Of a DNA stretch of 28,935 nucleotides, positions 1-28,935 are shown one piece after another. Both the position numbers and the translations under genes were made by a program. Position 1 is the first letter of the stretch; every line of letters starts with the position of its first letter. The notes below the pieces were generated by a model. That model searched no databases. It had not been told where the DNA came from and saw only the letters and a list, made by a program, of their open reading frames with translations. The stretch comes from a virus, in the IMG/VR virus record IMGVR_UViG_3300020454_000057, positions 1 through 28,935 of that record. One strand, written 5' to 3'.

Positions 1-519
1 GAAGATAATATTAAAGGACATCCCACGAACAGCAGAAGCAGAAGTAGATGAAGCAAGGAGACGAGATCCGTTCTCCAATTCGACTGACCCCTTGTTCCAA
101 CCAACAATACCCTGCTGCATCCATTTAGGAAGGTTCTCATAAGATAACTGTAAGCGTCCCAACATTTCTCTAGCAGTCGGGGCTTTGTTTGCGAGGATTG
201 CGACATTGACATTATCGTTGAATATTACATACCATAAAAGATATGATGTTACAATGGTTGATTTACCAGACTGACGTGGCAACTTTGCTATATTAAATCT
301 ATTCTCGTGAAAACTATGTACCATCTCCTCTTGGAAATCGTACATATTAAAAGGTATAACACCTTCATCTAGAGATACAATCTTAATATAGTTACGAATA
401 AAATATGCAGGATTTTTACTACACTTAATAAACTCTCCAACTTGTTCTGGGGTGAAGTGAGTTGGTACGTTTGCCTTCTTAAGGTTTGGATTACCTAAGT
501 ATATTTGATTTTCTGCCAT
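1..519 (-). CDS. 17: Terminase large subunit gp17, N-terminal part (runs off the left edge)
   Basis: This is the N-terminal 173 codons of the T4-type large terminase, the packaging ATPase/nuclease that docks on the portal and pumps DNA into the prohead. The frame is open to base 1. Visible in the sequence are an adenine-motif-like segment with YDFQ near residues 60-63 and a Walker A motif PRQSGKST at residues 81-88, a variant of the SRQLGKTT type in T4 gp17. The last residues, SFNIIF, are where Walker B would begin, so that motif and the nuclease domain lie outside the window. The ATG shares one base with the pcyA stop (TAATG), so translation is probably coupled. A late-promoter-like GATAAATA lies 43 bp upstream. 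The neighbourhood (gp13 to gp16 upstream) supports the call. Confidence 0.95.
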   Translation of the reverse strand, partial: MAENQIYLGNPNLKKANVPTHFTPEQVGEFIKCSKNPAYFIRNYIKIVSLDEGVIPFNMYDFQEEMVHSFHENRFNIAKLPRQSGKSTIVTSYLLWYVIFNDNVNVAILANKAPTAREMLGRLQLSYENLPKWMQQGIVGWNKGSVELENGSRLLASSTSASAVRGMSFNIIF

Positions 520-1211
520 TAATTCTTACTCCAAGGTTTGTCAAATAAGACATTGTTTATATATTTATCTGCCCACTCGGTATTAAACCACTGTGATAAT
601 ACTGCTTTAGTTTTTTTATTCTTTCTTTGGGATATACAATACCAAGTTTGATCATCCAATCTTTTCATTGTAGGTATCCAATGTGAGTGTGGGTCTTTCT
701 TTCCTACCTTTACAGCATCACAATATATTTTTAAATACTCTTTAACTACATTGAAGTAATCATCTCTTGCTTCTTGATCTTTCAATCTAGCAAATTTACA
801 GTGAGGTGAAAAGATCGACTCTGCCCATAAAGGCAAAGGTCTCTCATCTTTAAAATTATATTTTTTACTAACTACAGAGAGTTGATCGTCGAGATCCATC
901 CCGTGTACAGGAGACACATCGACAATAGCAGCAGTAATAGTTGTAGGCGTTTGGATAATGTCACAACCAAAAATAGGTAAAGAATATTCTGGATCTGGAT
1001 AGAAGACACAATGAATAATTTCTATCTTGTCAGTATTCGCTCTTTCTAGATGTAATTTCCTTACTCCTTTACATTTCCACATCTCATTGTGTATAGTCAC
1101 TTTCTCGTGCTTTATTACACTATGGTCTGTTTCCTTGATCTGAAGATCAGGCAAGTCATCAATACTCGTACGAATTAGATCCGCTAACGCATCACAAAGA
1201 TTTTCTGTCAC
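519..1211 (-). CDS. pcyA: Phycocyanobilin:ferredoxin oxidoreductase (PcyA-like bilin reductase)
   Basis: This is a 230-residue ferredoxin-dependent bilin reductase. PcyA reduces biliverdin IXalpha to phycocyanobilin in the cyanobacterial cytosol, feeding phycobiliproteins or phytochromes. The sequence follows cyanobacterial PcyA closely: RKLHLE (residues 51-56), IIHCVFYPDPEY (65-76), LPIFGCDI (78-85), AAIVDVSP (94-101) and a VLFD tail. By alignment from memory to Synechocystis PcyA, His54, Glu56, His67 and Asp84 correspond to the active-site His74, Glu76, His88 and Asp105, so the enzyme looks intact and is PcyA rather than the two-step phage enzyme PebS. The start is GTG at 1211 with an AGG six bases upstream, inside the end of the nuclease gene; the next Met is residue 44. 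No heme oxygenase is in the window. It is a typical cyanophage metabolic cargo gene beside the terminase. Confidence 0.93.
   Translation of the reverse strand: MTENLCDALADLIRTSIDDLPDLQIKETDHSVIKHEKVTIHNEMWKCKGVRKLHLERANTDKIEIIHCVFYPDPEYSLPIFGCDIIQTPTTITAAIVDVSPVHGMDLDDQLSVVSKKYNFKDERPLPLWAESIFSPHCKFARLKDQEARDDYFNVVKEYLKIYCDAVKVGKKDPHSHWIPTMKRLDDQTWYCISQRKNKKTKAVLSQWFNTEWADKYINNVLFDKPWSKN
562..569 (-). promoter_or_regulatory. Possible late promoter GATAAATA inside pcyA, ahead of gp17
   Basis: GATAAATA on the minus strand lies 43 bp upstream of the gp17 ATG, within the 3' end of pcyA. It could give terminase extra late transcription independent of the cargo genes. In AT-rich DNA a chance match inside a coding region is quite possible. 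Confidence 0.35.
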
Positions 1212-8087: not shown

Positions 8088-11000
8088 TTATAAAGCAGCG
8101 ATTGCAGACTGGAACGCAGCATAAGTAGCGGAGTTCGCAGCAGCAGTTTTGAGTTGTGCTAGTGTAATTGTCTCTGCTTGTAATGCAGAGTCTGCCTTGA
8201 CACCTTGGGCAGCAGTAGCGTATGCAGTTGATGCAGTCGCAGCAGCAGTGCCTAGTGTAGGTTTGCCACTTAAATCATTATATGCACCAGAGAATAATGA
8301 AGGTTTGCCAGTTAGATCATTGTATGCTCCACTGGTTGCTACAGTTGACAAGTCACCTGGTTGTGTAGCAGAAGCAGCAAGTGTACCCTGTGCAGCAGTT
8401 GCATAAGCACTTGAAGCAGTGGTAGCAGCAGATCCAAGTCCAAGAGTTGTTCTTGCAGCAGATGCTGATGCGTCATCAACCAGTGTTAGACCAAATGTGC
8501 TGATTGCAGAAGCATCAAGTTTTCCAGTGATACCTGCAACAACACGAGCATCTGCTCTAGCATTTGTATAGTATAGATTTGTTGATCCCTCTGCTACATC
8601 ATCAGTATCGTGGTTAGATAGTGATGCAATAGTTGAAGGAATAGTATATGATATTACACCAGTAGAAGAATTATATCCTAGATCTCCACTGACTGATATG
8701 TGTCCACGAGTTCTTGCAGCAGTGGTGAATAGGTTGGTTGATCCTTCTGTGATATTATCTGTATCAATGTCTGACTGAGTAACAGACAAAGTACCAGAAG
8801 AGTGTGTAATACCTGTTCCATATGTAAAGTGTGTTCTGGTTCTAGCAGCAGTGGTGAATAAATTTGTTGATCCTTCAGTAACGTTGTCAGTATCGATGTC
8901 TGCCTGTGTTACAGATAGAGTACCACCAGAGTGAGTGATACCTGTGCCATATGTGAAGTGAGTTCTTGTACGAGCAGCAGTAGTAAAGAGATTAGTTGAT
9001 CCCTCAGTAATATTATCAGTATTAATATCTGCCTGAGTTGCACTCAAGGTTAAGATATTTCCTGCATCATCGTAAGTAGCAGTAATACCTGTACCACCTG
9101 TGATTAGAGCGTTAACTCTGTCATCAACTCTTTCATCTGTGAAGTATAGATTTGTAGATCCTTCTGTAAGAGCATCTGTATTATGGTTACTAATGTCACC
9201 AACCTGTGACTCTTGGAACGTAATAGTTCCAGTAACGTTCATATTACCTTGAACTTCAAAGTTTGTAGAACAAACAAAGTTACTTACAGATAAAGTATTT
9301 GAACTAGGAACATATTTAAAGTTATCTGAGTCAGTTCTTATTTCAGTGTTTCCAGTTGTAGCAGAAACAAATGTTGGGAAGAATGTAAGGTTAGAACCTG
9401 TTGTGTTTGTGACATCAACTAGAGATGCAGTATCTGCATTACCTGTCAACGCACCAGTTACGTTACCAGTGATCTGACCTGTGACTCCAAGTGTGCCTTG
9501 TAAAGTTGTATCATCTTGAACAGTAAGTGTTCCAGTAATATTGGTGTTACCTGTAGGTCCGTCAACAGTAAATTTAACTCCTGCTGATCCACCAACTGAT
9601 AAGTCATCACCAACATATGCTTTTTTCTTAACTGATAAACCACCATCTGTATGTACAGAAGCAGCACTATCGTTATATGCAGAAGAATCTGTTACGTTAT
9701 TTGCTTGTACAAGACCTGCAAATGTAGCAGCACCTGCTGTGACATCTATACCAGAATTAAAGTCTGCGTTACCATCTACATTCAGAGTTGAATCAAAGTC
9801 AACTGCCTGTACAACATCAAGTGTACCTGCAATATCAGTATTACCACTTGCAGATGCAACGTTAAATTTATTAGTGTTGATGTTAAATCCACCACCAACG
9901 TTTAAGGTTGATTGTAAGTTTGCTGTAGAAGTAGCAATGATTGAAGATAGGGTTGTTGTTCCACCTGTTATATCGAGTGTTCCACCAACAACTGTGTTAC
10001 CTGATGGTCCATCTACAGTAAAACTACCTCCACCAATGTCAAAGTCATCTCCAATATATGCCTTCTTAGTAACTGCTAAACCACCTGCTGTAAATATTGC
10101 AGCACCGTTATTGTTTGCAGCAGTTGCCTGTGCAGTAGAATTTGCTCTTAGTTTCTCTGTTAATGATACAATACCACCAACTCCAAGAGTTCCATCTATT
10201 GTACTGTTTGTATATACTTTTAAGTCTCCACCAATACCAGTATTACCTGCAACAGATAAACCACCTGCTGATACTCTTAACGCACCATTAGATGCCCAAG
10301 ATCCACCAAGAGTTGCATTGGTAGAATTTGTAAGAGTTGTTATTCCAGTTACACCTAAAGTATTAGTAATATTTGTAACACCAGATACATCTAGGGTGTT
10401 ATTTAAAGTCGTCCCTAACGTTACTCCTAGCGTCCCTGAGAGCGTTGTATTGTTTGTGACACCCAAAGTACCACCAACAGTTAGATTAGAACCTGATCCA
10501 ACAATATTAACAGTGGAATTTAATGTAGATATTCCATCTGCTCTAAAGGTTCCTGCTACTAATGTATTACCTGTTGATTGAGCAACCGTAAATTTATTTG
10601 TATTAACTCTAAAGTCATTTGTTACATCGAGTGTACCAGTAATATCAACATTTCCACCAAACGATCCGTCGTCACCTACTATAAGATCATCACCAACTTG
10701 TAGATCTAGTCCAATACCTGCACCACCACCAACAATAAGAGCACCTGTAGAAGAATTAGTTGCGTTTGTAGTATCAAATAATTTGATAGAACCTGCATCA
10801 ATACCAGATCTAGTACCAGAAAATACTTCAGAACTATTAGTAGCATTGTGATAAACAGCAAATCTAAGTGCTGAATCATCCCATCCGAAGAATCCTAGTT
10901 TAGCATTTGAATCATAATATCTAAACTCTACACCACGATCTTTTGCGTCGTCAGATGCAGGAGCAGTATCTCCACCCAGTGTGATGATAGGATCGTCCAC

Positions 11001-14000
11001 AGTAATAGTAGTACTGTTTACTGTAGTTGTACTACCGTGAACTGTTAAGTTACCATCAACTATGGCATTACCACCAACATTAAGGTCTTGTCCAGAACTC
11101 AGGGTGACGGGTGCCGTGAATTGAGACGTAGCATTTACCGTTAATGCGTCACCAGATGCGTCACCGATGGTATTCTGTGCACCATTTAAAGTGACATCTC
11201 TATTTAAAGTAACATCTCCGTGGACGGTAAGTGTTCCTACTGTTGCTGAACCTTGTCCAGTTCTACCTATTGTTGTATTACCAGACTCTCCAAGAACTGT
11301 AAATTCTGTTGTGTCTCCAGAGTTAAGTTTACCAATATAAAGGTCATCACCAATATAAAGGTCGGTAGCAATACCTGCACCACCATAAACTCTTAAGTTT
11401 GAAGTATTATCTGTAGCATAAGATGGAGTATAAGCAGCAGTAAATCCTGTACGAAGTTTATAACGTACACGTAGATAGTTCTGTGTACTGAATGTCTCAG
11501 TGGTTCCTAAGTCTTTTTGGTTAATAGAACCGTTAATGTATAAATCTGAGTTAAACAGAGTGTCACCTTCAATGTAACCACCACCATCAAAACGGAAAGA
11601 CCCGTAATCTCCACCAGATATGACGAAATTGTCTTGAGCATCTGTTCCTATAGTTGGTACATCAACATCCTCGTGATGGAAGAAATTACCTAGATTTAGA
11701 GTACCCTCAATATCGGTATTACCATTCGTGGTGCTGATTTGAAATTTTTGTGCACTACCATTTGTAAGAGTAAATGTCTTACCAGTAGTGTCCATCAAGA
11801 AATCATTATGTAAAGTTACATCGTCATCAACATCAAGTGTTGCATTAAAAGTAACATCGCTGTCTACATTTAGAGTTGAATCAAAGTCTACTCCTTGTTT
11901 GGTGTTGAGTGTTCCTTCGATAACTGTATTACCGTTATCAGTGTCAACCGTAAACTTATCAACACTACTAGCAGTACGGATTTTGAATTCTTTTGCATCG
12001 GCAGTAACAATTAAATTGTCTGTGATTTCAGTTTCTAACTGTACATCTAATGTACCTTCAATAATAGTATTACCATTATCTGAATCAACTGTAAACTTAT
12101 CTACACCCGCAGCAGTTTGTATTGCAAATTCTTTGTTATCTGCTTTAATAATTACGTTATTATTAATTTCTGATTGACCTGCAATCGTAACAGTACCACC
12201 AACGTGTGCGTTCTCAGAAAGTCCAAGTCCACCAGTTACAACTAATGTACCAGTTGTAGTTGATGTAGAACCTGTATTTGTTGTAAGTGCTAAGTTACCT
12301 GCAATTAGAGGAGCATCAGTACCAGAGAAAACTTCGGATGTATTAGTTGCATTATATAAGAATCTATATCCACCTGTACCTGACCAAATATTTGAGTTAG
12401 CATAATCTTCATCCCAACCAAAGAATCCAACACGTGCCTGAGTATCGTAGTATTTAATCTCAACACCACGATCTTTATTATCATCAGTAGTGGGGGCAGT
12501 GTCTCCACCAAGAGTAATGATGGGGTCATCTACCGATATTGTTGTACTATTTACTGTGGTAGTAGTTCCGTCTACTTGTAGATTACCACGTACTTGTACT
12601 AAACCTGTTGCAGCATCATCGTCACCTGGATCTAATACCATAGTGGCATCACTGGTTCCGATAGTGTTCTGCTGTAAGTAGAAATCTTCTACTTGAACTT
12701 TTGAAGCAACATTAGTTGCTGTGATAACAATACCATCATCTGATGTTACGTTTATCACTGATGTTCCTGATCCTGCATTATTTGAAATAATGTCAAGAGT
12801 TCTATTTACAGAAGAGTTTACATTATGATGTATTTTTAAAGAACCTGATGAACGTTCTATTGTTTGTAGAGGTGTGTTTCCAGGTCTGTCAAGTTTTATA
12901 AGTGCACCACTAATATGAGTATCAACATTAATGTCTACTCCACCTGCACCAGTATTATCTACATTGTTAGCAGTAAATAATAAATTTCCACTGGTATCAT
13001 TTACAGTAACATAATTAAGATAATTAAATCCTCTATATCCTGTTGTCGCTGTTAATTCTTGATCTAACTCAAAAGTTTCTACAGTATTACCATCAGCAAA
13101 TCCCACCCTATTGTTTTGCATTTGAGTGTTATCGACTGCAAGTGCTGCAATAGTAACGTGACCATTTGCATCTACATCAAAATCTTCTTGAGCAAATGAT
13201 GCTAAACCTTTCTGTTCTGTAGCAGCAGCAGCGAGGTATCTCCAATTACTTACATCTCCACTTGTATGAGTAGGTGCTCCTTGTCCTGCACCAATATCTG
13301 TTATTGCCTGATATACTTTGCTTGCATTCTCCAGAATATCGTATCTATTATATGTTGAACCTGCATTATAGGTTGCATACTTTGAACCTTCAGTTGCAGT
13401 GGCAATCGGTACAACGGTTGCTTGTGTAATTCTTCCATATCTGTCAACAGAAAATTTAGATGCGTTTACAGTTTCTGTTCCGTATGGTTCACCATTAGCA
13501 CCATTAGCGTCTACAGATGTTAATGCTTCAACATTATATGAACCCACAACAACCGCAGTATCAGCAAGGTCGATAAATGGGTTAGATGCTACACCATCAG
13601 GTGTAGTAAATATAATTCTACCTGCACCACCAGTTAAGTTTCTAGTAGTGATTTGTCCTGTAGCAGTTCTAGCAAGCATACCAAATGTGGTTATGTTCGC
13701 TAATGCTGTTAAGTCACTATCTAATCCTTGTGCGTCAGTAATTCCATACTCAGCAAGTGTAGATGCTAAACTAGCACCAACAACCCTACCTCTTGAATCA
13801 ACTTGAACTCTAGAATATAGAGCAGTTGCATCAGGATCGTTAGCATTATAATGTGGAAGAGATGTAACTAATTCTAAGTTTGTAGCAAGGTTTAGGTTAG
13901 AAGAACCATCAAAAGAACCTGATCCAGTTATAGAACCTGTTAATTGAATTTGTCTTGCAGATGCAAGTCTTGTAGAAGTAGAAGCATTTCCAATTAACGT

Positions 14001-14240
14001 AGCACTAATAGCACCCGCCTCAAAGTTACCGTCAGCATCTCTTTTAACGAGAGTGTTAGCAGCGTTTGATTCAGTTTCTATTGGTCTCTCATATCTAAGA
14101 GAGTTCCAAGGCGTTACACCATCTCCGATTTTGATACGTGAAGTATCAATCTCGATGCCAAGTTCACCTTGTGCCAAGATAGGGTTGATGTTTGCCCACT
14201 GTTGAGCACCATCACGTCTTAATTGGAGTCTATTTGCCAT
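8088..14240 (-). CDS. Giant repeat-built tail fibre protein with MTD-like N-terminal domain
   Basis: This 2050-residue protein is probably the long tail fibre or its proximal part, used in host recognition. Residues about 4-49 (LQLRRDGAQQWANINPILAQ, IDTSRIKIGDGVTPWNSL) match the N-terminal domain of the Bordetella phage major tropism determinant, widespread at the virion-proximal end of tail fibres. The body is beta-repeat material: eight segments of the type KFTVDxxxGNTxIxGTL, two copies of a VDDPIITLGGDTAP/DRGVE/GFFGWD module near residues 570 and 1080, and a 43-residue repeat STNLFTTAARTRTHFTYGTG. The last 120 residues have the YNDLSGKPTL and TAYATAAQG fibre repeats. There is no S74-type self-cleaving chaperone domain and no adjacent fibre chaperone. 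A terminator and late promoter lie just upstream. Confidence 0.87.
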   Translation of the reverse strand: MANRLQLRRDGAQQWANINPILAQGELGIEIDTSRIKIGDGVTPWNSLRYERPIETESNAANTLVKRDADGNFEAGAISATLIGNASTSTRLASARQIQLTGSITGSGSFDGSSNLNLATNLELVTSLPHYNANDPDATALYSRVQVDSRGRVVGASLASTLAEYGITDAQGLDSDLTALANITTFGMLARTATGQITTRNLTGGAGRIIFTTPDGVASNPFIDLADTAVVVGSYNVEALTSVDANGANGEPYGTETVNASKFSVDRYGRITQATVVPIATATEGSKYATYNAGSTYNRYDILENASKVYQAITDIGAGQGAPTHTSGDVSNWRYLAAAATEQKGLASFAQEDFDVDANGHVTIAALAVDNTQMQNNRVGFADGNTVETFELDQELTATTGYRGFNYLNYVTVNDTSGNLLFTANNVDNTGAGGVDINVDTHISGALIKLDRPGNTPLQTIERSSGSLKIHHNVNSSVNRTLDIISNNAGSGTSVINVTSDDGIVITATNVASKVQVEDFYLQQNTIGTSDATMVLDPGDDDAATGLVQVRGNLQVDGTTTTVNSTTISVDDPIITLGGDTAPTTDDNKDRGVEIKYYDTQARVGFFGWDEDYANSNIWSGTGGYRFLYNATNTSEVFSGTDAPLIAGNLALTTNTGSTSTTTGTLVVTGGLGLSENAHVGGTVTIAGQSEINNNVIIKADNKEFAIQTAAGVDKFTVDSDNGNTIIEGTLDVQLETEITDNLIVTADAKEFKIRTASSVDKFTVDTDNGNTVIEGTLNTKQGVDFDSTLNVDSDVTFNATLDVDDDVTLHNDFLMDTTGKTFTLTNGSAQKFQISTTNGNTDIEGTLNLGNFFHHEDVDVPTIGTDAQDNFVISGGDYGSFRFDGGGYIEGDTLFNSDLYINGSINQKDLGTTETFSTQNYLRVRYKLRTGFTAAYTPSYATDNTSNLRVYGGAGIATDLYIGDDLYIGKLNSGDTTEFTVLGESGNTTIGRTGQGSATVGTLTVHGDVTLNRDVTLNGAQNTIGDASGDALTVNATSQFTAPVTLSSGQDLNVGGNAIVDGNLTVHGSTTTVNSTTITVDDPIITLGGDTAPASDDAKDRGVEFRYYDSNAKLGFFGWDDSALRFAVYHNATNSSEVFSGTRSGIDAGSIKLFDTTNATNSSTGALIVGGGAGIGLDLQVGDDLIVGDDGSFGGNVDITGTLDVTNDFRVNTNKFTVAQSTGNTLVAGTFRADGISTLNSTVNIVGSGSNLTVGGTLGVTNNTTLSGTLGVTLGTTLNNTLDVSGVTNITNTLGVTGITTLTNSTNATLGGSWASNGALRVSAGGLSVAGNTGIGGDLKVYTNSTIDGTLGVGGIVSLTEKLRANSTAQATAANNNGAAIFTAGGLAVTKKAYIGDDFDIGGGSFTVDGPSGNTVVGGTLDITGGTTTLSSIIATSTANLQSTLNVGGGFNINTNKFNVASASGNTDIAGTLDVVQAVDFDSTLNVDGNADFNSGIDVTAGAATFAGLVQANNVTDSSAYNDSAASVHTDGGLSVKKKAYVGDDLSVGGSAGVKFTVDGPTGNTNITGTLTVQDDTTLQGTLGVTGQITGNVTGALTGNADTASLVDVTNTTGSNLTFFPTFVSATTGNTEIRTDSDNFKYVPSSNTLSVSNFVCSTNFEVQGNMNVTGTITFQESQVGDISNHNTDALTEGSTNLYFTDERVDDRVNALITGGTGITATYDDAGNILTLSATQADINTDNITEGSTNLFTTAARTRTHFTYGTGITHSGGTLSVTQADIDTDNVTEGSTNLFTTAARTRTHFTYGTGITHSSGTLSVTQSDIDTDNITEGSTNLFTTAARTRGHISVSGDLGYNSSTGVISYTIPSTIASLSNHDTDDVAEGSTNLYYTNARADARVVAGITGKLDASAISTFGLTLVDDASASAARTTLGLGSAATTASSAYATAAQGTLAASATQPGDLSTVATSGAYNDLTGKPSLFSGAYNDLSGKPTLGTAAATASTAYATAAQGVKADSALQAETITLAQLKTAAANSATYAAFQSAIAAL
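8690..9046 (-). repeat. Tandem 129-bp (43-residue) repeat in the tail fibre gene
   Basis: Near-identical units occur with a period of exactly 129 bp: the string gttgatcc recurs at 8737, 8866 and 8995. Each encodes TEGSTNLFTTAARTR followed in the first units by THFTYGTGITHS and LSVTQ. Degenerate flanking units (TEGSTNLYFTDERVDDRV and AEGSTNLYYTNARADARV) suggest an older array. The reading frame is kept because 129 is a multiple of three. Confidence 0.88.
9520..12105 (-). repeat. Eight dispersed KFTVxxxxGNTxIxGTL repeats in the tail fibre
   Basis: Eight related segments are spread over this part of the fibre: KFTVDSDNGNTIIEGTL, KFTVDTDNGNTVIEGTL, KFQISTTNGNTDIEGTL, EFTVLGESGNTTIGRTG, KFTVAQSTGNTLVAGTF, SFTVDGPSGNTVVGGTL, KFNVASASGNTDIAGTL and KFTVDGPTGNTNITGTL. 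They alternate with xLxVxxDxxFxSTLxV-type strands, as expected for a trimeric beta-helical shaft. Confidence 0.85.
10811..11041 (-). repeat. Tail fibre module, copy B (GGDTAP/GFFGWDD)
   Basis: This encodes TTTVNSTTITVDDPIITLGG, then DRGVEFRYYD, LGFFGWDD and NATNSSEVFSGT. It is a second copy of the module at 12317-12576, about 1.5 kb (about 510 residues) further along the protein. Confidence 0.85.
12317..12576 (-). repeat. Tail fibre module, copy A (GGDTAP/GFFGWDE)
   Basis: This encodes TTTVNSTTISVDDPIITLGG, DRGVEIKYYD, VGFFGWDE and NATNTSEVFSGT. Copy A carries an extra YANSNIWSGTGGY-type insert compared with copy B at 10811-11041. The pair indicates internal duplication of a fibre segment. 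Confidence 0.85.
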
Positions 14241-21929: not shown

Positions 21930-23465
21930 TTAGAACTCTACAACGATTTTAATGTCTTCAATTTGGTCGCCCGCCCTTGAGATTGCTCTCCTATTGTCTA
22001 TGTAGATCACTTTACCTGAATCCTTTTTCACTTCAGGTTTGGCGTAACCAGATGTGAATGACATACCTAAATCATACTCCGTGTTGTTTATGACACGTGT
22101 TGCTTCACCAGGAACTACAGGGAAGTTGATGTCAGGGTCAACAGACGTACCAGAACCCGAACCAACAATGGTGTTACCACCAGAAAACTCAACTTTATTA
22201 CCAGTAATCTCAGGGAATATACCATCTACTCTGTTTTGATAAAATTTCAAAACTTTTGTTAAGGAGTTCCAAGAAACTACACGACCACGGGCAGTGACCT
22301 GTTGTCCACCCACAGTACGAGTTTGAGTTATGATTTCATCAGTATTAAATGATCCTGTGAAATCAGGAGAAAATATTACAGCATTAGATGCTGATAAAGT
22401 AATAGCGTCTGCTAATTCTTCGGTACCATACTTAAATGGATTAAGAGTTAATCCAATACGACGGTAATCATTATCAGTAGGGAAGTCTCCTGATCCCTCT
22501 GAGTATGTAAATTTGGTGTTGATCATAACACGGAATCCACCTAACTCAATAGCAGGAGTAGATCCGTGACCACCTTTAGGTGGAATAATAACGTCAATAG
22601 CACCACCAGATCCTGTACCAGAACCAATACCATTAACTTCATCAACAACGATTTTACCGAAGGAATAGTTAGATCCTCCAGAAGTCACAGTTGCAGATAC
22701 AATACGACCACCATCAACAACGACAGAAATACGTCCACCAGTTCCATCACCTCTTAGAGGGATATTTTCATATGTACCATTGTTATATCCAGAACCAGAT
22801 GATTGAATAACAACAGTGTCAATCTCTCCTCCAACAGCATCAGATTGAACAGCACTGTCAATTAAAACAGGCATATAATCTGCTGAGAAGAATTTCAGAA
22901 CCGATCCCACTGGGATGGTGTACATATACTTCCAACGATAACCATCAGCAGTGGTGATAATAGAAGTAGAAGTGCCAGTGGGTTCGATCGTACTAGGTTT
23001 ACCGTTCGGATCAGAGGGTGACGTTCCATTGTAGATACACTTATATGTTTGATAAGATGAGTTAACAACATAGAAATCAGCATCATATAGTTTAGTAGCA
23101 CCACTAGAAGCAGTCTTACTAGATGAGTAGTCGTTACGATACATATCGTAAACATAACCTAAACCACCAGTAGTTTGTTCTGGGGGTATCCAGTCAATAC
23201 GACGTACGACTTGAATAGCGTCACTGGCAAGTACACGCTTCATAGAAATCATATCGTCATATGCGTCTGAGAACTCTTGAAAAGAGTCTATAGGGGTAGG
23301 AGGATTATTCTCATTATCCCATTCTTGAGGGCGACCAATGAAAACATACAAACGGTCACGATTTGCACCCGCAGCGATGTCACTCTGAGTCGAATCTGGT
23401 CCCTCAAGTGATTTGATGAATTTTTCAGCGGTGAAAATTCTAAATTGATCGGTAAGTAATGCCAT
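21930..23465 (-). CDS. 8: Baseplate wedge protein gp8
   Basis: This is a 511-residue homologue of T4 gp8, a dimeric component of the baseplate wedge. Shared landmarks in order are the start DQFRIFTAEKFIKSL, YVFIGRPQEW (T4: FITFGRSEPW), VVRRIDW (T4: VIPRRDW), YKCIYNG, TIEPTGTS...TADGYRWKYMYTIPVG (T4: TIEPGDGYVWEYLFEIPP), and the C-terminus SGKVIYIDNRRAISRAGDQIED (T4: GEMIYMENRPPIIMAMDQTEE). It is longer than the 334-residue T4 protein because of an insert of Gly-rich repeats near residues 210-300 (SGSGYNNGTYENIPL, TSGGSNYSFGKI) and a beta module near 365-440. A late promoter TATAAATA and an AGGAAGG stretch lie upstream. Confidence 0.88.
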   Translation of the reverse strand: MALLTDQFRIFTAEKFIKSLEGPDSTQSDIAAGANRDRLYVFIGRPQEWDNENNPPTPIDSFQEFSDAYDDMISMKRVLASDAIQVVRRIDWIPPEQTTGGLGYVYDMYRNDYSSSKTASSGATKLYDADFYVVNSSYQTYKCIYNGTSPSDPNGKPSTIEPTGTSTSIITTADGYRWKYMYTIPVGSVLKFFSADYMPVLIDSAVQSDAVGGEIDTVVIQSSGSGYNNGTYENIPLRGDGTGGRISVVVDGGRIVSATVTSGGSNYSFGKIVVDEVNGIGSGTGSGGAIDVIIPPKGGHGSTPAIELGGFRVMINTKFTYSEGSGDFPTDNDYRRIGLTLNPFKYGTEELADAITLSASNAVIFSPDFTGSFNTDEIITQTRTVGGQQVTARGRVVSWNSLTKVLKFYQNRVDGIFPEITGNKVEFSGGNTIVGSGSGTSVDPDINFPVVPGEATRVINNTEYDLGMSFTSGYAKPEVKKDSGKVIYIDNRRAISRAGDQIEDIKIVVEF

Positions 23466-23500: not shown

Positions 23501-25372
23501 TTAGTCAGGTTCGTTTCTGATATAGGATGGATAATTTATAAATTGGATAACACCTATGGCACCTGACGTACCTCCAGTGATATTTTCGTTCTTATTCCAG
23601 AGGTAATTTCCACTATTTGCAACTGGATTTTTGATAACAAGTTTCTTTGTAGTTGCATCCCAAGATTCAACTGTTCCTGTTACTCCACTTAAACTTCCTG
23701 TTATTGTTTCACTCTGAACAAAGTCATTAGTGTTATTCATTGTACGGAAAGTAAACTCAATAGTTGCAACGTGTGCATCTCCATCACCTAAAGCACCTGC
23801 AATAGAAACAGTTGGTGATCTAGCAGGAAGAGACGCATCTGTCATTTGGTCTCCAACTTGGAACAATGAAGTGTTTTGTCCACCTAATGTTTCCTCAATA
23901 CCATATAGAGATGATGCAATACCTCCATCAAGACTTATTGCACCTGCATAGTCTGTATTAGTATTTACCAGATCAGGAATACCATCTCCTGCTCCTTGTA
24001 ATTCATCATCATCTTCAAACTTTTTATCCTGTATTAGACCTATAGGATCTGTTAACTGAACTATATTGTCACCTATAGACTCTACTAATACGTGTGGTTC
24101 AACACCAGTTTCAGTAGATCCTGCTGTACCTCCTACAAAGTCAATAACTGCTGACAATGTATTAGATGATCCACCATCAATAAATGCTAGTTTATCAACT
24201 TCAAATGTCAAATACAGTGCATTTATTGCAGGTCTCCAATCATAAACACGAGCAATCTTATTACTAGAACTTTCAGAAGTTCTTATAACACGATCTCCCA
24301 CATTAAAAATATACTGACTGACACCATTAACATCATCTGCGAGTGAATCTAATGTTACTTTTTGATCATATCTAAAGTTAACAGCACGGTCACAACCAAC
24401 AAAAGATGTAGCAGTTTTACCTGTATATCTAATAACTTCACTTCCAATTAATATTTTTCCTGATCCAGGATAAGGTGAAGTAGTCTCAACAAATATTGTT
24501 TGATCAGATATACCCACATTATTAATAAGACCAGTTATATTATATAAAAATGAGTTAAATGCTTGTCTGTTTCTAGACCTTTTTATTAAATCAGTATTTC
24601 TAGTAAAAATTACTGAAGGTTCTGATGAAAAACCACCACCAGGATCAAGAACATTTATAGCAGTGATAGCACCTAAATCTACAGTAGCAACTGCTCTGGC
24701 ACCACCTCCACCTCCACCATTGAGTAAAATAACAGGAGGAGTTTGGAAATACTCACCTGCGTTCGATATATTTACTGCTTTAACAATACCAAATTCATCT
24801 ACCTCTGCAACACCAGTAGCACCCTGTCCTCCTCCACCAGATACAATAATATTAATATCACCATTCTCATAATTTGATCCAGTATCTTCTAAAGATAAAC
24901 CAGTAAGTAATCCAGTAACAGGTCTGAGTTCAGCACCTGCACCACCACCACCTTCAATTACAGCAGTGGTTAGATCATTAAAATACTGATCTCCATTCGA
25001 TAACATTTGAATGTATTGAATAGCACCCGCAGGTGCTATTAATGTTCCATCAGCAGCATATTGATCAGCATCCCATAGGATTGCTTTTGCCTCTGCTCCA
25101 TATCCTAAACCTGCTGTTGTTAAAGTAATTCTAAATGGATCATATCCTTCACCTGGATCTAATACTTTTACAGCAGCAATTTGACCATTAGTAATAACAG
25201 GTTCAAGTATTGCTTCTCTTAATGGTGTTCCACAATTTCCAACTTTTAATTCTGGAGGGTCCCCTGCGACATAACCAGTCCCCCCATCATTAACAAATAC
25301 GTCTTTTATACCATACGTACTGTTAAAGATAGGTTCTATAACTGCTCCTGATCCTGGGACTGTTCTTGTCAT
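23501..25372 (-). CDS. Gly-rich virion structural protein, probable baseplate component (623 aa)
   Basis: I do not recognise a T4 homologue. The N-terminal 270 residues are a degenerate repeat of GGGGxGAxAxAxVxxxGxIxAINVxDPGxGYxxxPxVxF type (GTGYVAGDPPEL, VLDPGEGYDP, NAGEYFQTPPVILLNGGGGG, LDPGGGFSSEPSVIF). The middle has LYNITGLINNVGISDQTIFV and IGSEVIRYTGK, a common cyanophage virion segment. The C-terminus (FVQSETITGSLSGVTGTVES, WDATTKKLVIKNP) matches the beta module also seen in gp14 and gp8. Position directly before gp8 suggests a baseplate-wedge role in the gp7 slot, but the sequence does not show gp7 homology that I can verify. The ATG is coupled by TAATG to the upstream fibre-like gene. 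Confidence 0.72.
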   Translation of the reverse strand: MTRTVPGSGAVIEPIFNSTYGIKDVFVNDGGTGYVAGDPPELKVGNCGTPLREAILEPVITNGQIAAVKVLDPGEGYDPFRITLTTAGLGYGAEAKAILWDADQYAADGTLIAPAGAIQYIQMLSNGDQYFNDLTTAVIEGGGGAGAELRPVTGLLTGLSLEDTGSNYENGDINIIVSGGGGQGATGVAEVDEFGIVKAVNISNAGEYFQTPPVILLNGGGGGGARAVATVDLGAITAINVLDPGGGFSSEPSVIFTRNTDLIKRSRNRQAFNSFLYNITGLINNVGISDQTIFVETTSPYPGSGKILIGSEVIRYTGKTATSFVGCDRAVNFRYDQKVTLDSLADDVNGVSQYIFNVGDRVIRTSESSSNKIARVYDWRPAINALYLTFEVDKLAFIDGGSSNTLSAVIDFVGGTAGSTETGVEPHVLVESIGDNIVQLTDPIGLIQDKKFEDDDELQGAGDGIPDLVNTNTDYAGAISLDGGIASSLYGIEETLGGQNTSLFQVGDQMTDASLPARSPTVSIAGALGDGDAHVATIEFTFRTMNNTNDFVQSETITGSLSGVTGTVESWDATTKKLVIKNPVANSGNYLWNKNENITGGTSGAIGVIQFINYPSYIRNEPD

Positions 25373-27048
25373 TACCTAATTTCTAATGTTCCAGACATAT
25401 CGTTGTGGATTGTACACTGATAATATAGAGTGGTAGGTGCATCAAATGGAACTGTAAATGACTGCATAGCAGTGCTAGATCCACTAATACCTGTAGTATA
25501 TGGGGTTCCTGATGTTCCAGTTGTGGACTGAATTCTTAGTGGATGAGATGCTCCAGTAGTATTATTGAAATCATATGTAAATCCACGATAAAGAATTATA
25601 GTAGGATCTGTTGATCCTCCAGATGGTAATCCAGGTCCGTTTACTGTATAGTTTGATTGTCCAACTGCACTAAAAACATATAGAAGTGTTGGAGATGGTT
25701 TATATACAGTTGCATTATTATATCCTTTAATAGGAGTTGATCCTGCGGGAGCACTTGTACCTTGACGTTTGAATCCTCTATCAACGTCTTCAAAAGTTGA
25801 ACCATCGTTAGCAACTTGTAATTCACCGTTGGTATCAAGTTTTATTCTCTTAGTACCAATCTTAATTTCAGCACCATCTGCTAATTCTAAGTTGTTACTT
25901 GCATCAAGTGATAATTTTTTAGTACCACCACTACCAAATCTAATCTCTGCTGATTCTGGAATTTCTAAGTTACCAGATCCATCAAATTTAATTGCTTTAT
26001 TAGCATCACCACCAAAACGAATATCTGTTCCTGTAGGTAAATCTAAGTTATTGTTTCCATCAAACTTAAGTTCTTTAGTAGATCCACTTGCACCAAAACG
26101 AATAGAAGCAGCAGCAGGTAGTTCTAATACATCAGAATCAAATGATAATTCTTTACCAGTATCAAACTTAAGTTTCTGTCCTGCAAGATCTACAACACCA
26201 TCTTCATCTTGAGTAACTAATTTATTCTTAGATGAAATCTTAACATTACCTGCTACACCTAGTTCTTGAGTTTGGTTTGCAGTTCCTGTAGCGGTAACTG
26301 TAACACTACCACGAGTAGCACCTGCTTCAGCAGTAAATGATGCAAATGCTGCATCAATTTTATTACCAGTAGAATCTTCAATCTCTAACTCAGTACCAAC
26401 TTTCATAGCACTGAAACGTGTACGAAGTGCTTCTTCTTGTGTTGAGTTCTCTGATGCTAGTTTAGATGTGATAGTACGAGTTGCACCTGTGTCTATACTA
26501 TGAACAGTATGTTCTACTCTTTTTCTACGAGTAACTTCTTGGTCTGATCCTATAGAAATACCTGTATCATCCATCCAAATAGTAGAACTGGATAGATATA
26601 AATCCCTAAACTTAAGTGCTGAACTACCTAAGTCATATGTGTTATCGGTGTTTGGTAAAAGATGAGTTGAAATAACAACGTTGTTTGAACCATTGTTAGT
26701 CAAATTAGTAATGGCACTGCCCCCACCGCCACTACCTTGTAAGTCATCACCAGGTTGGAATCTTGAGTTTGCTGTATTCCACTTCAATACTTGACCATTC
26801 GTAATACTCGTTAGGTCTATATCTGTTAAATTAGATGATGCCAGATCACCTTCTGTAAATACTGAACCATTCCATTTTAGGACTTGGTTTGTTGATGGTG
26901 ATCCAACACTAATTTGTAAGTTAGTATCATCACCTAATTGGGTGTATAACTCATTAATAACGTTATTAATTTTTATAGCACCGTCTCTGAGGGTATCTCC
27001 TGTACCATCATTTGCCGATACACCGACGTTTACATTCTGCTTAGCCAT
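25372..27048 (-). CDS. Fibre-like virion protein with C-terminal cupredoxin-like domain (558 aa)
   Basis: The N-terminus (NVNVGVSANDGTGDTLRDGA, IKINNVINELYTQL) is the adaptor found on many cyanophage fibre proteins. It is followed by a DLGSSALKFRDLYLSSS fibre motif (140-155) and then a tandem repeat of about 27 residues at 292-413 (KELKFDGNNNLDLPTG, TDIRFGG and relatives). Residues about 450-558 look like a cupredoxin: TIILYRGFTYDFNN, SHPLRI with His502, and LYYQCTIHNDMSG with Cys545, His548 and Met551. The four type-1 copper ligands are therefore present, with the short C-x2-H-x2-M loop known from amicyanin. It is probably a virion appendage with either a copper site or a fold used for binding (inferred). 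A late-type CATAAATA lies upstream; no clear Shine-Dalgarno is seen. Confidence 0.8.
   Translation of the reverse strand: MAKQNVNVGVSANDGTGDTLRDGAIKINNVINELYTQLGDDTNLQISVGSPSTNQVLKWNGSVFTEGDLASSNLTDIDLTSITNGQVLKWNTANSRFQPGDDLQGSGGGGSAITNLTNNGSNNVVISTHLLPNTDNTYDLGSSALKFRDLYLSSSTIWMDDTGISIGSDQEVTRRKRVEHTVHSIDTGATRTITSKLASENSTQEEALRTRFSAMKVGTELEIEDSTGNKIDAAFASFTAEAGATRGSVTVTATGTANQTQELGVAGNVKISSKNKLVTQDEDGVVDLAGQKLKFDTGKELSFDSDVLELPAAASIRFGASGSTKELKFDGNNNLDLPTGTDIRFGGDANKAIKFDGSGNLEIPESAEIRFGSGGTKKLSLDASNNLELADGAEIKIGTKRIKLDTNGELQVANDGSTFEDVDRGFKRQGTSAPAGSTPIKGYNNATVYKPSPTLLYVFSAVGQSNYTVNGPGLPSGGSTDPTIILYRGFTYDFNNTTGASHPLRIQSTTGTSGTPYTTGISGSSTAMQSFTVPFDAPTTLYYQCTIHNDMSGTLEIR
25810..26175 (-). 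repeat. Tandem ~27-residue LKFDGxxNLxLPxxxxIRFG repeat
   Basis: Four to five degenerate units, inside the 558-residue fibre-like protein: KLKFDTGKELSFDSDVLELP, ELKFDGNNNLDLPTGTDIRF, IKFDGSGNLEIPESAEIRFG, LSLDASNNLELADGAEIKIG and a short final IKLDTNGELQV. Regular alternation indicates a beta-solenoid shaft. Confidence 0.85.
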
Positions 27049-27072: not shown

Positions 27073-27080
27073 TATTTATG
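27073..27080 (-). promoter_or_regulatory. Late promoter core CATAAATA, 558-residue fibre gene
   Basis: The minus strand reads CATAAATAAA, ending 25 bp upstream of the ATG at 27048 and overlapping the stop region of the YHYH gene. It differs from TATAAATA only at the first base, which is variable in cyanophage late promoters. An AAAAACCCCCC tract separates it from the start codon. Confidence 0.55.
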
Positions 27081-28443
27081 TCATATCGAAAGATTCTGAC
27101 GTATTATCCAAATTTACATCTTGTCTAGTAAAGTCAGGATTGTTATTATCCCGATCAAATGTAACTGGAGTCATATCGTACTTTCCAATACCAGTGTCAA
27201 ATTTAAGGATAGAGGAATAATCTATAGACGTTCCAGAACCTGTTACAGTAAGGATCGCTAGATTGCTTATTAAAGGTGAGTTTTGTGCTTGTGTTGATGA
27301 ACCAACTGGACCAGTTAATACACATCTATAACGATAACCCGTCATAAATGGTTGAGCATTTACTGTTAAAGTTGCAGTAGTATCACCAGTCAAATTAGAC
27401 CAAGCAAATCCACCATCTGTTGATACTTGCCACTGATACGCAATAGTATCATTTTGTGGTTGTATCTCTGCTAACAAACTAAACTGTTGTGTATTACCAC
27501 TTTGAACAGTAGCGTTTGTTGGTTGATTTGTTATAACAAGAGTAGGAGGTTGAGCAGGAGTATCACCACTTCCACTGTCACCACCAGTAGTTTGTGTAAA
27601 ACCACTATTTGCAGGAACTGACATTGCCTCTTTCGAGGTCAGACCCATCATAAAAGGAAATACAGGATTTCCAGAAACATCTTCGGTAAGAAAATATGCA
27701 AAAGTACCACTAGGATACTCAGGTGTCACACAATATCTACCATTGTGTGTATCTAATTTACCTGTTCCACCAGTGTATTCCCAGTCTTCCATAAACACAC
27801 CTGCGGGGTATGTTCCACTATAACCAGGTCTACTAGGTGCTTCCTCGCTCCTTACTGTCCATCCAGAGGACATTCTGATAACAGATGTAACATTACTGTT
27901 AGGATCTGTATATCCCCAAGGACCATATACAGGATAACCGTCAAAAGCATAACCAATTATTTTAGAGTGTCCATCAGGATGTCTAATATTATCACCATTA
28001 TATTGAGATGAACCATAATAATCATTATATCCTGCCATCGCCTGATTGTTATTCCAACAATCTAAGAAGTCGCTGTCGTTATAACGGTACTGACCAGTTG
28101 ACTCAGGATAACCACCACAACTATCTTCTCCATAATTAAGAGCAGAACTAATACCCGCTGCCACGTAGGAAAATCCTGACGGGGGCGATCCATCATTTCC
28201 TGCACTAGGATTAAAGAAGACGACACCGTTTGCAGCAATACCAATAGCACCCAGACTGACAACCCCAGAATTAGACGTGTTTGATCCACCTCTGTGAACA
28301 AAGTTGTGGTTGAAAGTATATGATGTAATAGTATTTGTGTTATTGGCATTAGGAAATGTTCCCGAAGTTACTGGAAAAGGTAAACCATTACCAGTTACTG
28401 TTAGGACATTATTACTGCTGTTATAGGTTGCATTTGCTGCCAT
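27076..28443 (-). CDS. YHYH-domain plus Ig-like domain virion protein (455 aa)
   Basis: Residues about 45-268 match the YHYH domain family: SCGGYPESTGQYRYNDSDF (108-126), HPDGHSKIIGYAFDGYPVYG (155-174), LDTHNGRYCVTPEYPSGTFA (230-249) and FPFMMG (262-267). The eponymous Tyr-His-Tyr-His is replaced by Tyr-Arg-Tyr-Asn, and the usual Gly-Gly-His-Pro is Gly-Gly-Tyr-Pro, so a metal site based on those histidines would be lost. Residues about 302-400 form an Ig-like domain (AYQWQVSTDGGFAWSNLTGD, YRCVLTG, AILTV) closely related to the one in the preceding gene. It has no signal peptide. Ig-like domains are typical of phage surface decorations, so carbohydrate or cell-surface binding is plausible (inferred). 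It lies 8 bp after the upstream gene. Confidence 0.82.
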   Translation of the reverse strand: MAANATYNSSNNVLTVTGNGLPFPVTSGTFPNANNTNTITSYTFNHNFVHRGGSNTSNSGVVSLGAIGIAANGVVFFNPSAGNDGSPPSGFSYVAAGISSALNYGEDSCGGYPESTGQYRYNDSDFLDCWNNNQAMAGYNDYYGSSQYNGDNIRHPDGHSKIIGYAFDGYPVYGPWGYTDPNSNVTSVIRMSSGWTVRSEEAPSRPGYSGTYPAGVFMEDWEYTGGTGKLDTHNGRYCVTPEYPSGTFAYFLTEDVSGNPVFPFMMGLTSKEAMSVPANSGFTQTTGGDSGSGDTPAQPPTLVITNQPTNATVQSGNTQQFSLLAEIQPQNDTIAYQWQVSTDGGFAWSNLTGDTTATLTVNAQPFMTGYRYRCVLTGPVGSSTQAQNSPLISNLAILTVTGSGTSIDYSSILKFDTGIGKYDMTPVTFDRDNNNPDFTRQDVNLDNTSESFDMT

Positions 28444-28451
28444 AAGAGTAT

Positions 28452-28935
28452 TTAGTCGTCGTCAAAGATTTGTGTAGGTGTGAAGGAACTAAGTGTTGTA
28501 GCACCGATGTTAACGGTGAGAACAGCAGAAGTTGATAGAACAGGAACCGCACCATTAGATGTGATACCAACACGGAATTCATCATTTGTATCTGCTTGTG
28601 TAGTAGCATCAGTTGTGAATGTAGAACTGGTTGCTCCAGTAATATTATTCCAACTTGTTGTTCCGTAATCTTTCTTCTGCCATTGATATGATAGAGTTCC
28701 GTTATTAACATTGATTGCTGAACCCATATATTGATGAGCACCACATACGTAATTAAGGGTAGCAGGAGCATCAGCAGCAACCGTGATACTAACACTACGT
28801 GTTGTAGCAGCATTAAATCCTGATGCGTAGGTTGCGTAATCTGCAACTTGATTACCGTTAAGACGATATACAACACCTGTTTCATATCTACTATTTCCAC
28901 CGTAAGCAGTTGCATCTTCACTAAAGTAAAGTGCG
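28452..28935 (-). CDS. Virion protein with cupredoxin-like and Ig-like domains, C-terminal part
   Basis: The frame is open to the right edge, so only about the last 160 residues are seen; the Met at 28727 is internal, not the start. The visible N-terminal part (ALYFSEDATAYGG, YRLNGNQVADYATYASG, DAPATLNYVCGAHQYMGSA) is the end of a cupredoxin-like domain with a C-x2-H-x2-M loop. Comparison with the 558-residue protein suggests the upstream His (in a HP motif) lies just outside the window. An Ig-like domain follows (LSYQWQKKDYGTTSWNNITG, FRVGITSNG, AVLTV), and the end is acidic (TQIFDDD). It is likely a virion decoration or fibre protein in the same transcript as the YHYH-domain gene. Confidence 0.8.
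   Translation of the reverse strand, partial: ALYFSEDATAYGGNSRYETGVVYRLNGNQVADYATYASGFNAATTRSVSITVAADAPATLNYVCGAHQYMGSAINVNNGTLSYQWQKKDYGTTSWNNITGATSSTFTTDATTQADTNDEFRVGITSNGAVPVLSTSAVLTVNIGATTLSSFTPTQIFDDD

What the first reader, a model, noticed from the sequence alone, without database searches (positions are those of the whole stretch)
25375..25695. Complete type-1 copper ligand set in a phage fibre protein
The last ~105 residues of the 558-residue virion protein look like a cupredoxin, and all four canonical ligand positions are filled: His502, Cys545, His548, Met551. The loop is CTIHNDM, the same C-x2-H-x2-M spacing and length as the CTPHPFM loop of amicyanin, the shortest loop among well-known cupredoxins. 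A redox-active or metal-scavenging site on a virion appendage, late in infection of a photosynthetic host, would be unexpected. The alternative is that the cupredoxin fold is only a binding scaffold.
Basis: partly seen in the sequence, partly recalled or inferred. Interest (0 to 1): 0.72.

Follow-up and report, generated by a model that had tools for sequence, protein, structure and literature searches.

The report
Copper-site cupredoxin on cyanophage baseplate protein
A baseplate/tail-fibre protein of marine cyanobacterial viruses ends in a domain built like blue-copper proteins, with all four copper-holding residues kept by natural selection across many relatives, so these virus particles probably carry metal, most likely copper, on their host-contacting machinery.

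Summary
Residues 447-558 of the 558-aa protein (25372-27048, minus) form a confident beta-sandwich (AlphaFold2 pLDDT 93.9) whose 50 best PDB fold matches are almost all type-1-copper cupredoxins. His502, Cys545, His548 and Met551 fill the four ligand positions. The protein is gp9/gp10-like: a T4 gp9/gp10 baseplate anchor, a fibre-like repeat region, then the cupredoxin at the C-terminus.

Of 79 distinct C-termini, 77 carry the domain and all 77 keep all four ligands (median identity 49%), across three ligand-loop lengths. Over all copies in several virion proteins, ligands are present or lost as a set. The only substitution is axial Met to Gln, known from stellacyanin. A ligand-free sister domain keeps the fold, so these residues are not needed merely to fold.

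At least 319 phage records carry the domain, almost all cyanophages. No paper linking cupredoxins to phage virions was found. Selection for a type-1-like metal site is strongly supported. Copper itself, ligand geometry and function are untested. Preferred role: a metal-clamped head used in adsorption or assembly.

The parts
25372..27048 (-). gp9/gp10-like baseplate wedge / tail-fibre connector protein, 558 aa
   Evidence: PHROG 677 'baseplate wedge tail fiber protein connector' E 7e-72; Pfam T4_gp9_10_N 45 bits
26770..27042 (-). N-terminal baseplate anchor (residues 3-93)
   Evidence: PF07880 T4_gp9_10_N; PDB T4 gp10 E 7e-7 and gp9 E 0.003 over residues 3-50/61
25819..26127 (-). fibre-like repeats, residues 308-410, four copies about 26 aa apart (L-x-[LIV]-[PA]...I-[RK]-[FI]-G...)
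   Evidence: read directly from the sequence; shaft role is inference
25375..25710 (-). cupredoxin domain (residues 447-558)
   Evidence: AlphaFold2 pLDDT 93.9, pTM 0.85; Foldseek best hits cupredoxins, prob 1.00
25543..25545 (-). codon of ligand His502 (first His, just before a strand)
25414..25416 (-). codon of ligand Cys545 (end of the penultimate strand, only Cys of the protein)
25405..25407 (-). codon of ligand His548
25396..25398 (-). codon of axial ligand Met551
28704..28934 (-). second, truncated copy of the cupredoxin module at the window edge (CGAHQYM loop at 28725-28745); a complete relative is in L205 (THAIYF ... CGNHPYM)
27076..28443 (-). YHYH-domain virion protein between the two cupredoxin-bearing genes
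   Evidence: PF14240 E 1e-34; PHROG 25852 virion structural protein
21930..23465 (-). gp8 baseplate wedge gene (synteny anchor)
   Evidence: PHROG 438, PF09215

Best explanation
The C-terminal 112 residues are a cupredoxin domain with a selected type-1-like metal site (His502, Cys545, His548, axial Met551), placed after an N-terminal T4 gp9/gp10-type baseplate anchor and a fibre-like repeat region. Shown: fold (by prediction), ligand set, its selection as a unit, and wide distribution. Inferred: the protein is a trimer on the baseplate, so several heads face the host or neighbouring fibres; each head binds copper tightly, either in the cell or from the lysate and sea water; the metal clamps the 502/545-551 loops and shapes an exposed patch around His548 used for adsorption or for docking to another baseplate or fibre part. 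Redox activity would come with such a site but need not be its function.
For: Fold: pLDDT 93.9, with Cys at the end of the penultimate strand, His/Met in the next loop and His502 just before a strand; PDB fold hits are nitrite reductase, rusticyanin, amicyanin, AcoP, plastocyanin and laccase. Ligands: 77/77 distinct orthologous domains keep H, C, H, M although fetched by N-terminus or gp8, domain identity 30-99%, median 49%; His/Cys codons vary synonymously. Loops of different length keep the ligands: C-x2-H-x2-M 262, C-x4-H-x2-M 7, C-x2-H-x3-M 1 over all copies. Census over all virion proteins: 270 H/C/H/M, 9 H/C/H/Q, 49 copies or fragments lacking Cys and second His together, none lacking just one of those. 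In loci fetched without the domain: 85 HCHM, 6 HCHQ, 1 lost. Natural control: sister domain B has lost Cys/His/Met but its model still matches cupredoxins. A homologous domain in the P-SSM2 tail fibre passes Pfam's PF00127 Copper-bind cut-off (23.3 vs 21.2 bits). A cellular relative is a 136-aa protein with a lipoprotein-like signal and the same ligands.
Against: No metal measurement exists; the ligand distances were not measured; the window's own domain gives no Pfam Copper-bind hit; sequence similarity to solved cupredoxins is weak; TM-scores to solved structures are modest (about 0.5). The residue after the first His is Pro here, not the Asn usual in amicyanin and plastocyanin (own knowledge). 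Domain B shows that phages can use this fold without ligands. No experiment ties the domain to adsorption, and the trimer and tip position are inferred from T4 relatives.
Confidence: 0.6

Rival explanations
1. Redox role: the copper cycles Cu(I)/Cu(II) and exchanges electrons with a host surface or periplasmic partner, or detoxifies oxidants, during adsorption.
For: Full type-1 ligand set, with the axial position limited to Met or Gln, the classic tuning position of blue copper sites.
Against: No redox partner is known on a virion; baseplate proteins stay outside the cell; type-1 sites bind copper tightly without turnover. Nothing here tests electron transfer.
Confidence: 0.15
2. Structural site for another metal, such as Zn(II): the same residues bind zinc for rigidity.
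For: Cupredoxin sites accept Zn and Ni in vitro (own knowledge); several phage tail tips carry structural metal (own knowledge).
Against: The His/Cys/His/Met set with Met-to-Gln axial variation is typical of copper; zinc sites rarely keep an axial Met (own knowledge).
Confidence: 0.13
3. Metal-free binding scaffold: a cupredoxin fold used only for protein-protein or receptor binding, with the four residues kept for packing.
For: Sister domain B keeps the fold without the ligands; a few orthologues replace the whole domain with another C-terminal domain (L247, L248, L274).
Against: If folding were all that mattered the four residues should drift one at a time; they do not, and they persist through loop insertions.
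Confidence: 0.07
4. Copper scavenging or delivery: virions pick up copper from lysate or sea water and carry it to, or keep it from, the next host (a copper analogue of the Ferrojan horse idea for iron).
For: Marine distribution; several virion proteins of one phage carry sites, so one particle could hold many atoms.
Against: Even tens of sites per virion are little next to a cell's copper quota (own estimate); no evidence of release; the idea is an analogy (papers mention the iron version).
Confidence: 0.05

Closest known systems
Amicyanin / plastocyanin (type-1 copper cupredoxins, PF00127)
   Same: Beta-sandwich, four ligands in the same order, ligand loop after the penultimate strand; C-x2-H-x2-M as in amicyanin
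   Different: Fused to a baseplate/fibre protein, no Asn after the first His (Pro in 77/77), no PF00127 hit for the window domain, role unknown
Rusticyanin, AcoP and copper nitrite reductase domains
   Same: Best fold matches in the PDB; C-x4 spacing as in some gp9 variants
   Different: Longer proteins or enzymes with known redox partners; about 13-24% identity
Cyanophage plastocyanin PetE (auxiliary metabolic gene, T4-GC 225)
   Same: A blue copper protein gene carried by the same phage group (PMC3037559)
   Different: There a free 324-369-base host-derived gene for photosynthesis; here a C-terminal module of a virion protein near gp8
T4 gp9 / gp10 baseplate proteins
   Same: N-terminal anchor, gene near gp8 and baseplate wedge genes
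   Different: T4 gp9 has no cupredoxin (own knowledge); here a repeat region and cupredoxin replace its C-terminal part
Other cyanophage virion proteins with the same module (T4-GC 399 protein, P-SSM2 proximal tail fibre, S-SCSM1 fibre)
   Same: Homologous domain with the same ligands
   Different: Other carrier proteins; the T4-GC 399 protein adds a ligand-free second copy; some fibres use axial Gln

Membership tests
Type-1 copper cupredoxin | Cupredoxin Greek-key beta-sandwich | tested here: met
   AF2 pLDDT 93.9; Foldseek PDB hits prob 1.00, cupredoxins throughout the top 50; prediction only
Type-1 copper cupredoxin | His, Cys, His plus axial Met/Gln in canonical order and loop position | tested here: met
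   Gln variants in relatives
Type-1 copper cupredoxin | Ligands conserved as a set | tested here: met
   77/77; all-or-none census
Type-1 copper cupredoxin | Bonding geometry of the four side chains | not testable with these tools
   model coordinates not released; only secondary structure and fold matches available
Type-1 copper cupredoxin | Recognised by the curated profile PF00127 | tested here: inconclusive
   window domain has no hit; 7 of 24 relatives hit below cut-off; the P-SSM2 fibre paralogue passes
Type-1 copper cupredoxin | Binds copper, ~600 nm absorbance | not testable with these tools
   needs protein
Amicyanin | C-x2-H-x2-M loop | tested here: met
   73 of 77 orthologues
Amicyanin | Small free periplasmic partner of methylamine dehydrogenase | tested here: not met
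   domain is fused to a virion protein
Cyanophage PetE plastocyanin | Stand-alone plastocyanin gene | tested here: not met
   558-aa fusion in the baseplate gene cluster
T4 gp9/gp10-like baseplate protein | N-terminal anchor domain PF07880 | tested here: met
   45 bits vs cut-off 25; T4 gp10 E 7e-7
T4 gp9/gp10-like baseplate protein | Position beside gp8 and baseplate wedge genes | tested here: met
T4 gp9/gp10-like baseplate protein | Trimer on the baseplate | not testable with these tools
   inferred from T4

The most novel reading that the evidence does not exclude
Marine cyanomyoviruses carry an array of type-1 copper centres on the baseplate and fibres, reused in several virion proteins, and the metal (its binding or redox state) takes part in host recognition or in triggering the tail: a metalloprotein-based infection machine.
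Probability: 0.25. Interest if true: 0.88.

Novelty: new variant of a known kind. Interest (0 to 1): 0.66.

Why it matters
T4-like cyanophages are among the most abundant ocean viruses, and how their baseplates and short appendages contact the host is poorly known. A conserved metal site there would be an unrecognised bioinorganic part of the infection machine, link marine copper chemistry to phage infection, and give a direct handle (copper, chelators, ligand mutants) to test adsorption. It also warns that cupredoxin hits in cyanophage genomes are not all photosynthesis genes: one such virion-cluster gene is annotated PetE.

Tried and rejected
Single-sequence searches of the window domain gave no significant Pfam or PDB hit; only profile and fold searches did. 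The 24-row alignment A1 was pre-filtered for C..H..M, so its invariance was not used as evidence; the unfiltered sets were. A first scan of bacterial genomes with the single domain found nothing, and a first alignment was too diverse to scan with. The profile scan gave 25 loci, several of them clearly cyanophage gp9 contigs inside MAGs (L100, L103-L105), others cellular, such as the Jejuia protein with a lipoprotein-like signal. Inter-subunit disulphide by the single Cys was considered: it would not explain conservation of the two His and Met. Acquisition from host plastocyanin (petE) was considered but not tested with a tree; the phage domain is far from PF00127. No paper linking cupredoxins to phage virions was found in seven searches aimed at it, and the A-1(L) tail structure paper has no cupredoxin. 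Literature in subscription journals is not covered.

Full report
What was checked. The protein belongs to PHROG 677 (baseplate wedge tail fiber protein connector, E 7e-72); residues 3-93 match Pfam T4_gp9_10_N above its cut-off, and residues 3-50 match T4 gp10 (E 7e-7) and residues 3-61 T4 gp9 (0.003) among solved structures. Residues 308-410 hold four similar stretches about 26 aa apart that look like a fibre shaft (by eye). The neighbour gp8 (21930-23465) and other baseplate genes lie in cyanophage order. A bilin reductase gene at 519-1211 and best DNA matches to cyanophages P-RSM6 and P-SSM7 make this a cyanophage.

Fold. AlphaFold2 with 24 relatives gives pLDDT 93.9 and pTM 0.85: nine strands, His502 just before one, Cys545 at the end of the penultimate strand, His548 and Met551 in the following loop. 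Foldseek against the PDB gives 25 matches at E <= 0.001; the top 50 are copper nitrite reductase, rusticyanin, amicyanin, AcoP, plastocyanin, pseudoazurin, laccases and a few relatives. TM-scores are modest (about 0.5). Profile search of PDB sequences puts nitrite reductases first and amicyanins and plastocyanins among the best matches. Coordinates are not released by the tool, so ligand distances were not measured.

Are the ligands selected? To avoid circularity, orthologues were fetched by the first 116 residues of the protein or by gp8. Of 79 distinct complete C-termini, 77 carry the domain, and all 77 keep His, Cys, His and Met, at pairwise identities of 30-99% (median 49%). These four are among only 15 fully invariant columns of 120. 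The other two end in an unrelated domain. Three orthologues have a C-x4-H-x2-M loop and one C-x2-H-x3-M, with ligands intact. His and Cys codons vary synonymously. The loci kept are the best 80 per scan, so close relatives are over-represented.

Other copies. The same module occurs in the T4-GC 399 baseplate protein (220 phage records), tail fibres of P-SSM2, S-SCSM1 and Sf-CH5, and a gene whose 5' part is cut by the window edge (28704-28934). Over all distinct copies: 270 H/C/H/M, 9 H/C/H/Q and 49 copies or fragments without Cys and second His; no copy has lost only one of these. The Gln copies (e.g. CHYHTGQ) match the axial Met-to-Gln change known from stellacyanin (own knowledge). In loci fetched without using the domain the counts are 85 HCHM, 6 HCHQ, 1 lost. 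The T4-GC 399 protein also holds a second domain, B, without Cys, second His or Met; its profile is related to the first (hhalign 96.8%), and its model (pLDDT 81) still has cupredoxins as best PDB matches. So the fold survives without the ligands, and where ligands remain they remain as a set. This is what a metal site predicts and what a pure scaffold does not.

Membership. A P-SSM2 tail-fibre copy passes Pfam's Copper-bind cut-off; the window copy does not. Fold, ligand order and set-wise conservation of type-1 cupredoxins are met; geometry and copper are untested. It is not amicyanin (no free periplasmic protein) nor the phage petE gene. It works like a blue copper site as far as sequence can tell.

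Spread. 319 INPHARED records match at E <= 0.01, almost all Synechococcus or Prochlorococcus phages; gp8 relatives are found in 487 records. Structural relatives in the viral library include Marseillevirus and Pithovirus 'beta-sandwich proteins'. Cellular relatives with the same ligands exist, for example a 136-aa Jejuia protein with a lipoprotein-like signal; one of the two scan patterns that found these included the Cys, so mainly the other three ligands are informative there.

Mechanism. The best-supported reading is a metal-loaded head at the C-terminus of a baseplate appendage. Binding of copper is inferred from the ligand set; position and trimer state from T4; the use in adsorption or docking is inference. 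Electron transfer is not excluded but has no partner and no test. Literature searches found no report of cupredoxins in phage virions; plastocyanin in cyanophages is known only as a metabolic gene in what I read (PMC3037559). That study also detected 41 proteins in S-SM1 virions, but the table naming them is not in the text read.

Noticed in passing
28704-28934 (-), complete relative in L205:3-3011: A second cupredoxin copy with a CGAHQYM loop at the window edge, near the end of a ~1000-aa virion protein and followed by Ig-like sequence.
   Followed up: partly
27076-28443 (-): YHYH-domain (PF14240) virion protein between two cupredoxin-bearing genes; in some relatives (e.g. L219) the ORF at this place carries a cupredoxin loop CTAHSGM instead.
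   Followed up: partly
L193:2795 ORF, L161, L194, L267, L270, L271, L309, L316, L318: Virion proteins with axial Gln in place of Met (CHYHTGQ / CHHHTGQ), a stellacyanin-like ligand set.
   Followed up: partly
L159:2794 ORF residues ~562-700 and relatives (T4-GC 399 protein): Ligand-free sister cupredoxin fold (domain B) beside a ligand-complete copy in one protein; a natural negative control.
   Followed up: yes
L066:5800-6306 (PQ898602, S-SCSM2R): 168-aa gene annotated PetE, lying beside large fibre/peptidase S8 genes and related to this virion domain; probably not plastocyanin.
   Followed up: partly
L102 (Nonlabens xiamenensis, 188-kb contig) and MAG loci L100, L103-L105: Cyanophage-type gp9 genes inside bacterial assemblies; likely phage contigs mis-binned or contaminating.
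   Followed up: no
8088-14240 (-): 2050-aa protein with an Mtd_N (major tropism determinant N-terminal) domain.
   Followed up: no
519-1211 (-): Ferredoxin-dependent bilin reductase (PF05996), a cyanophage auxiliary gene, beside neck and packaging genes.
   Followed up: no
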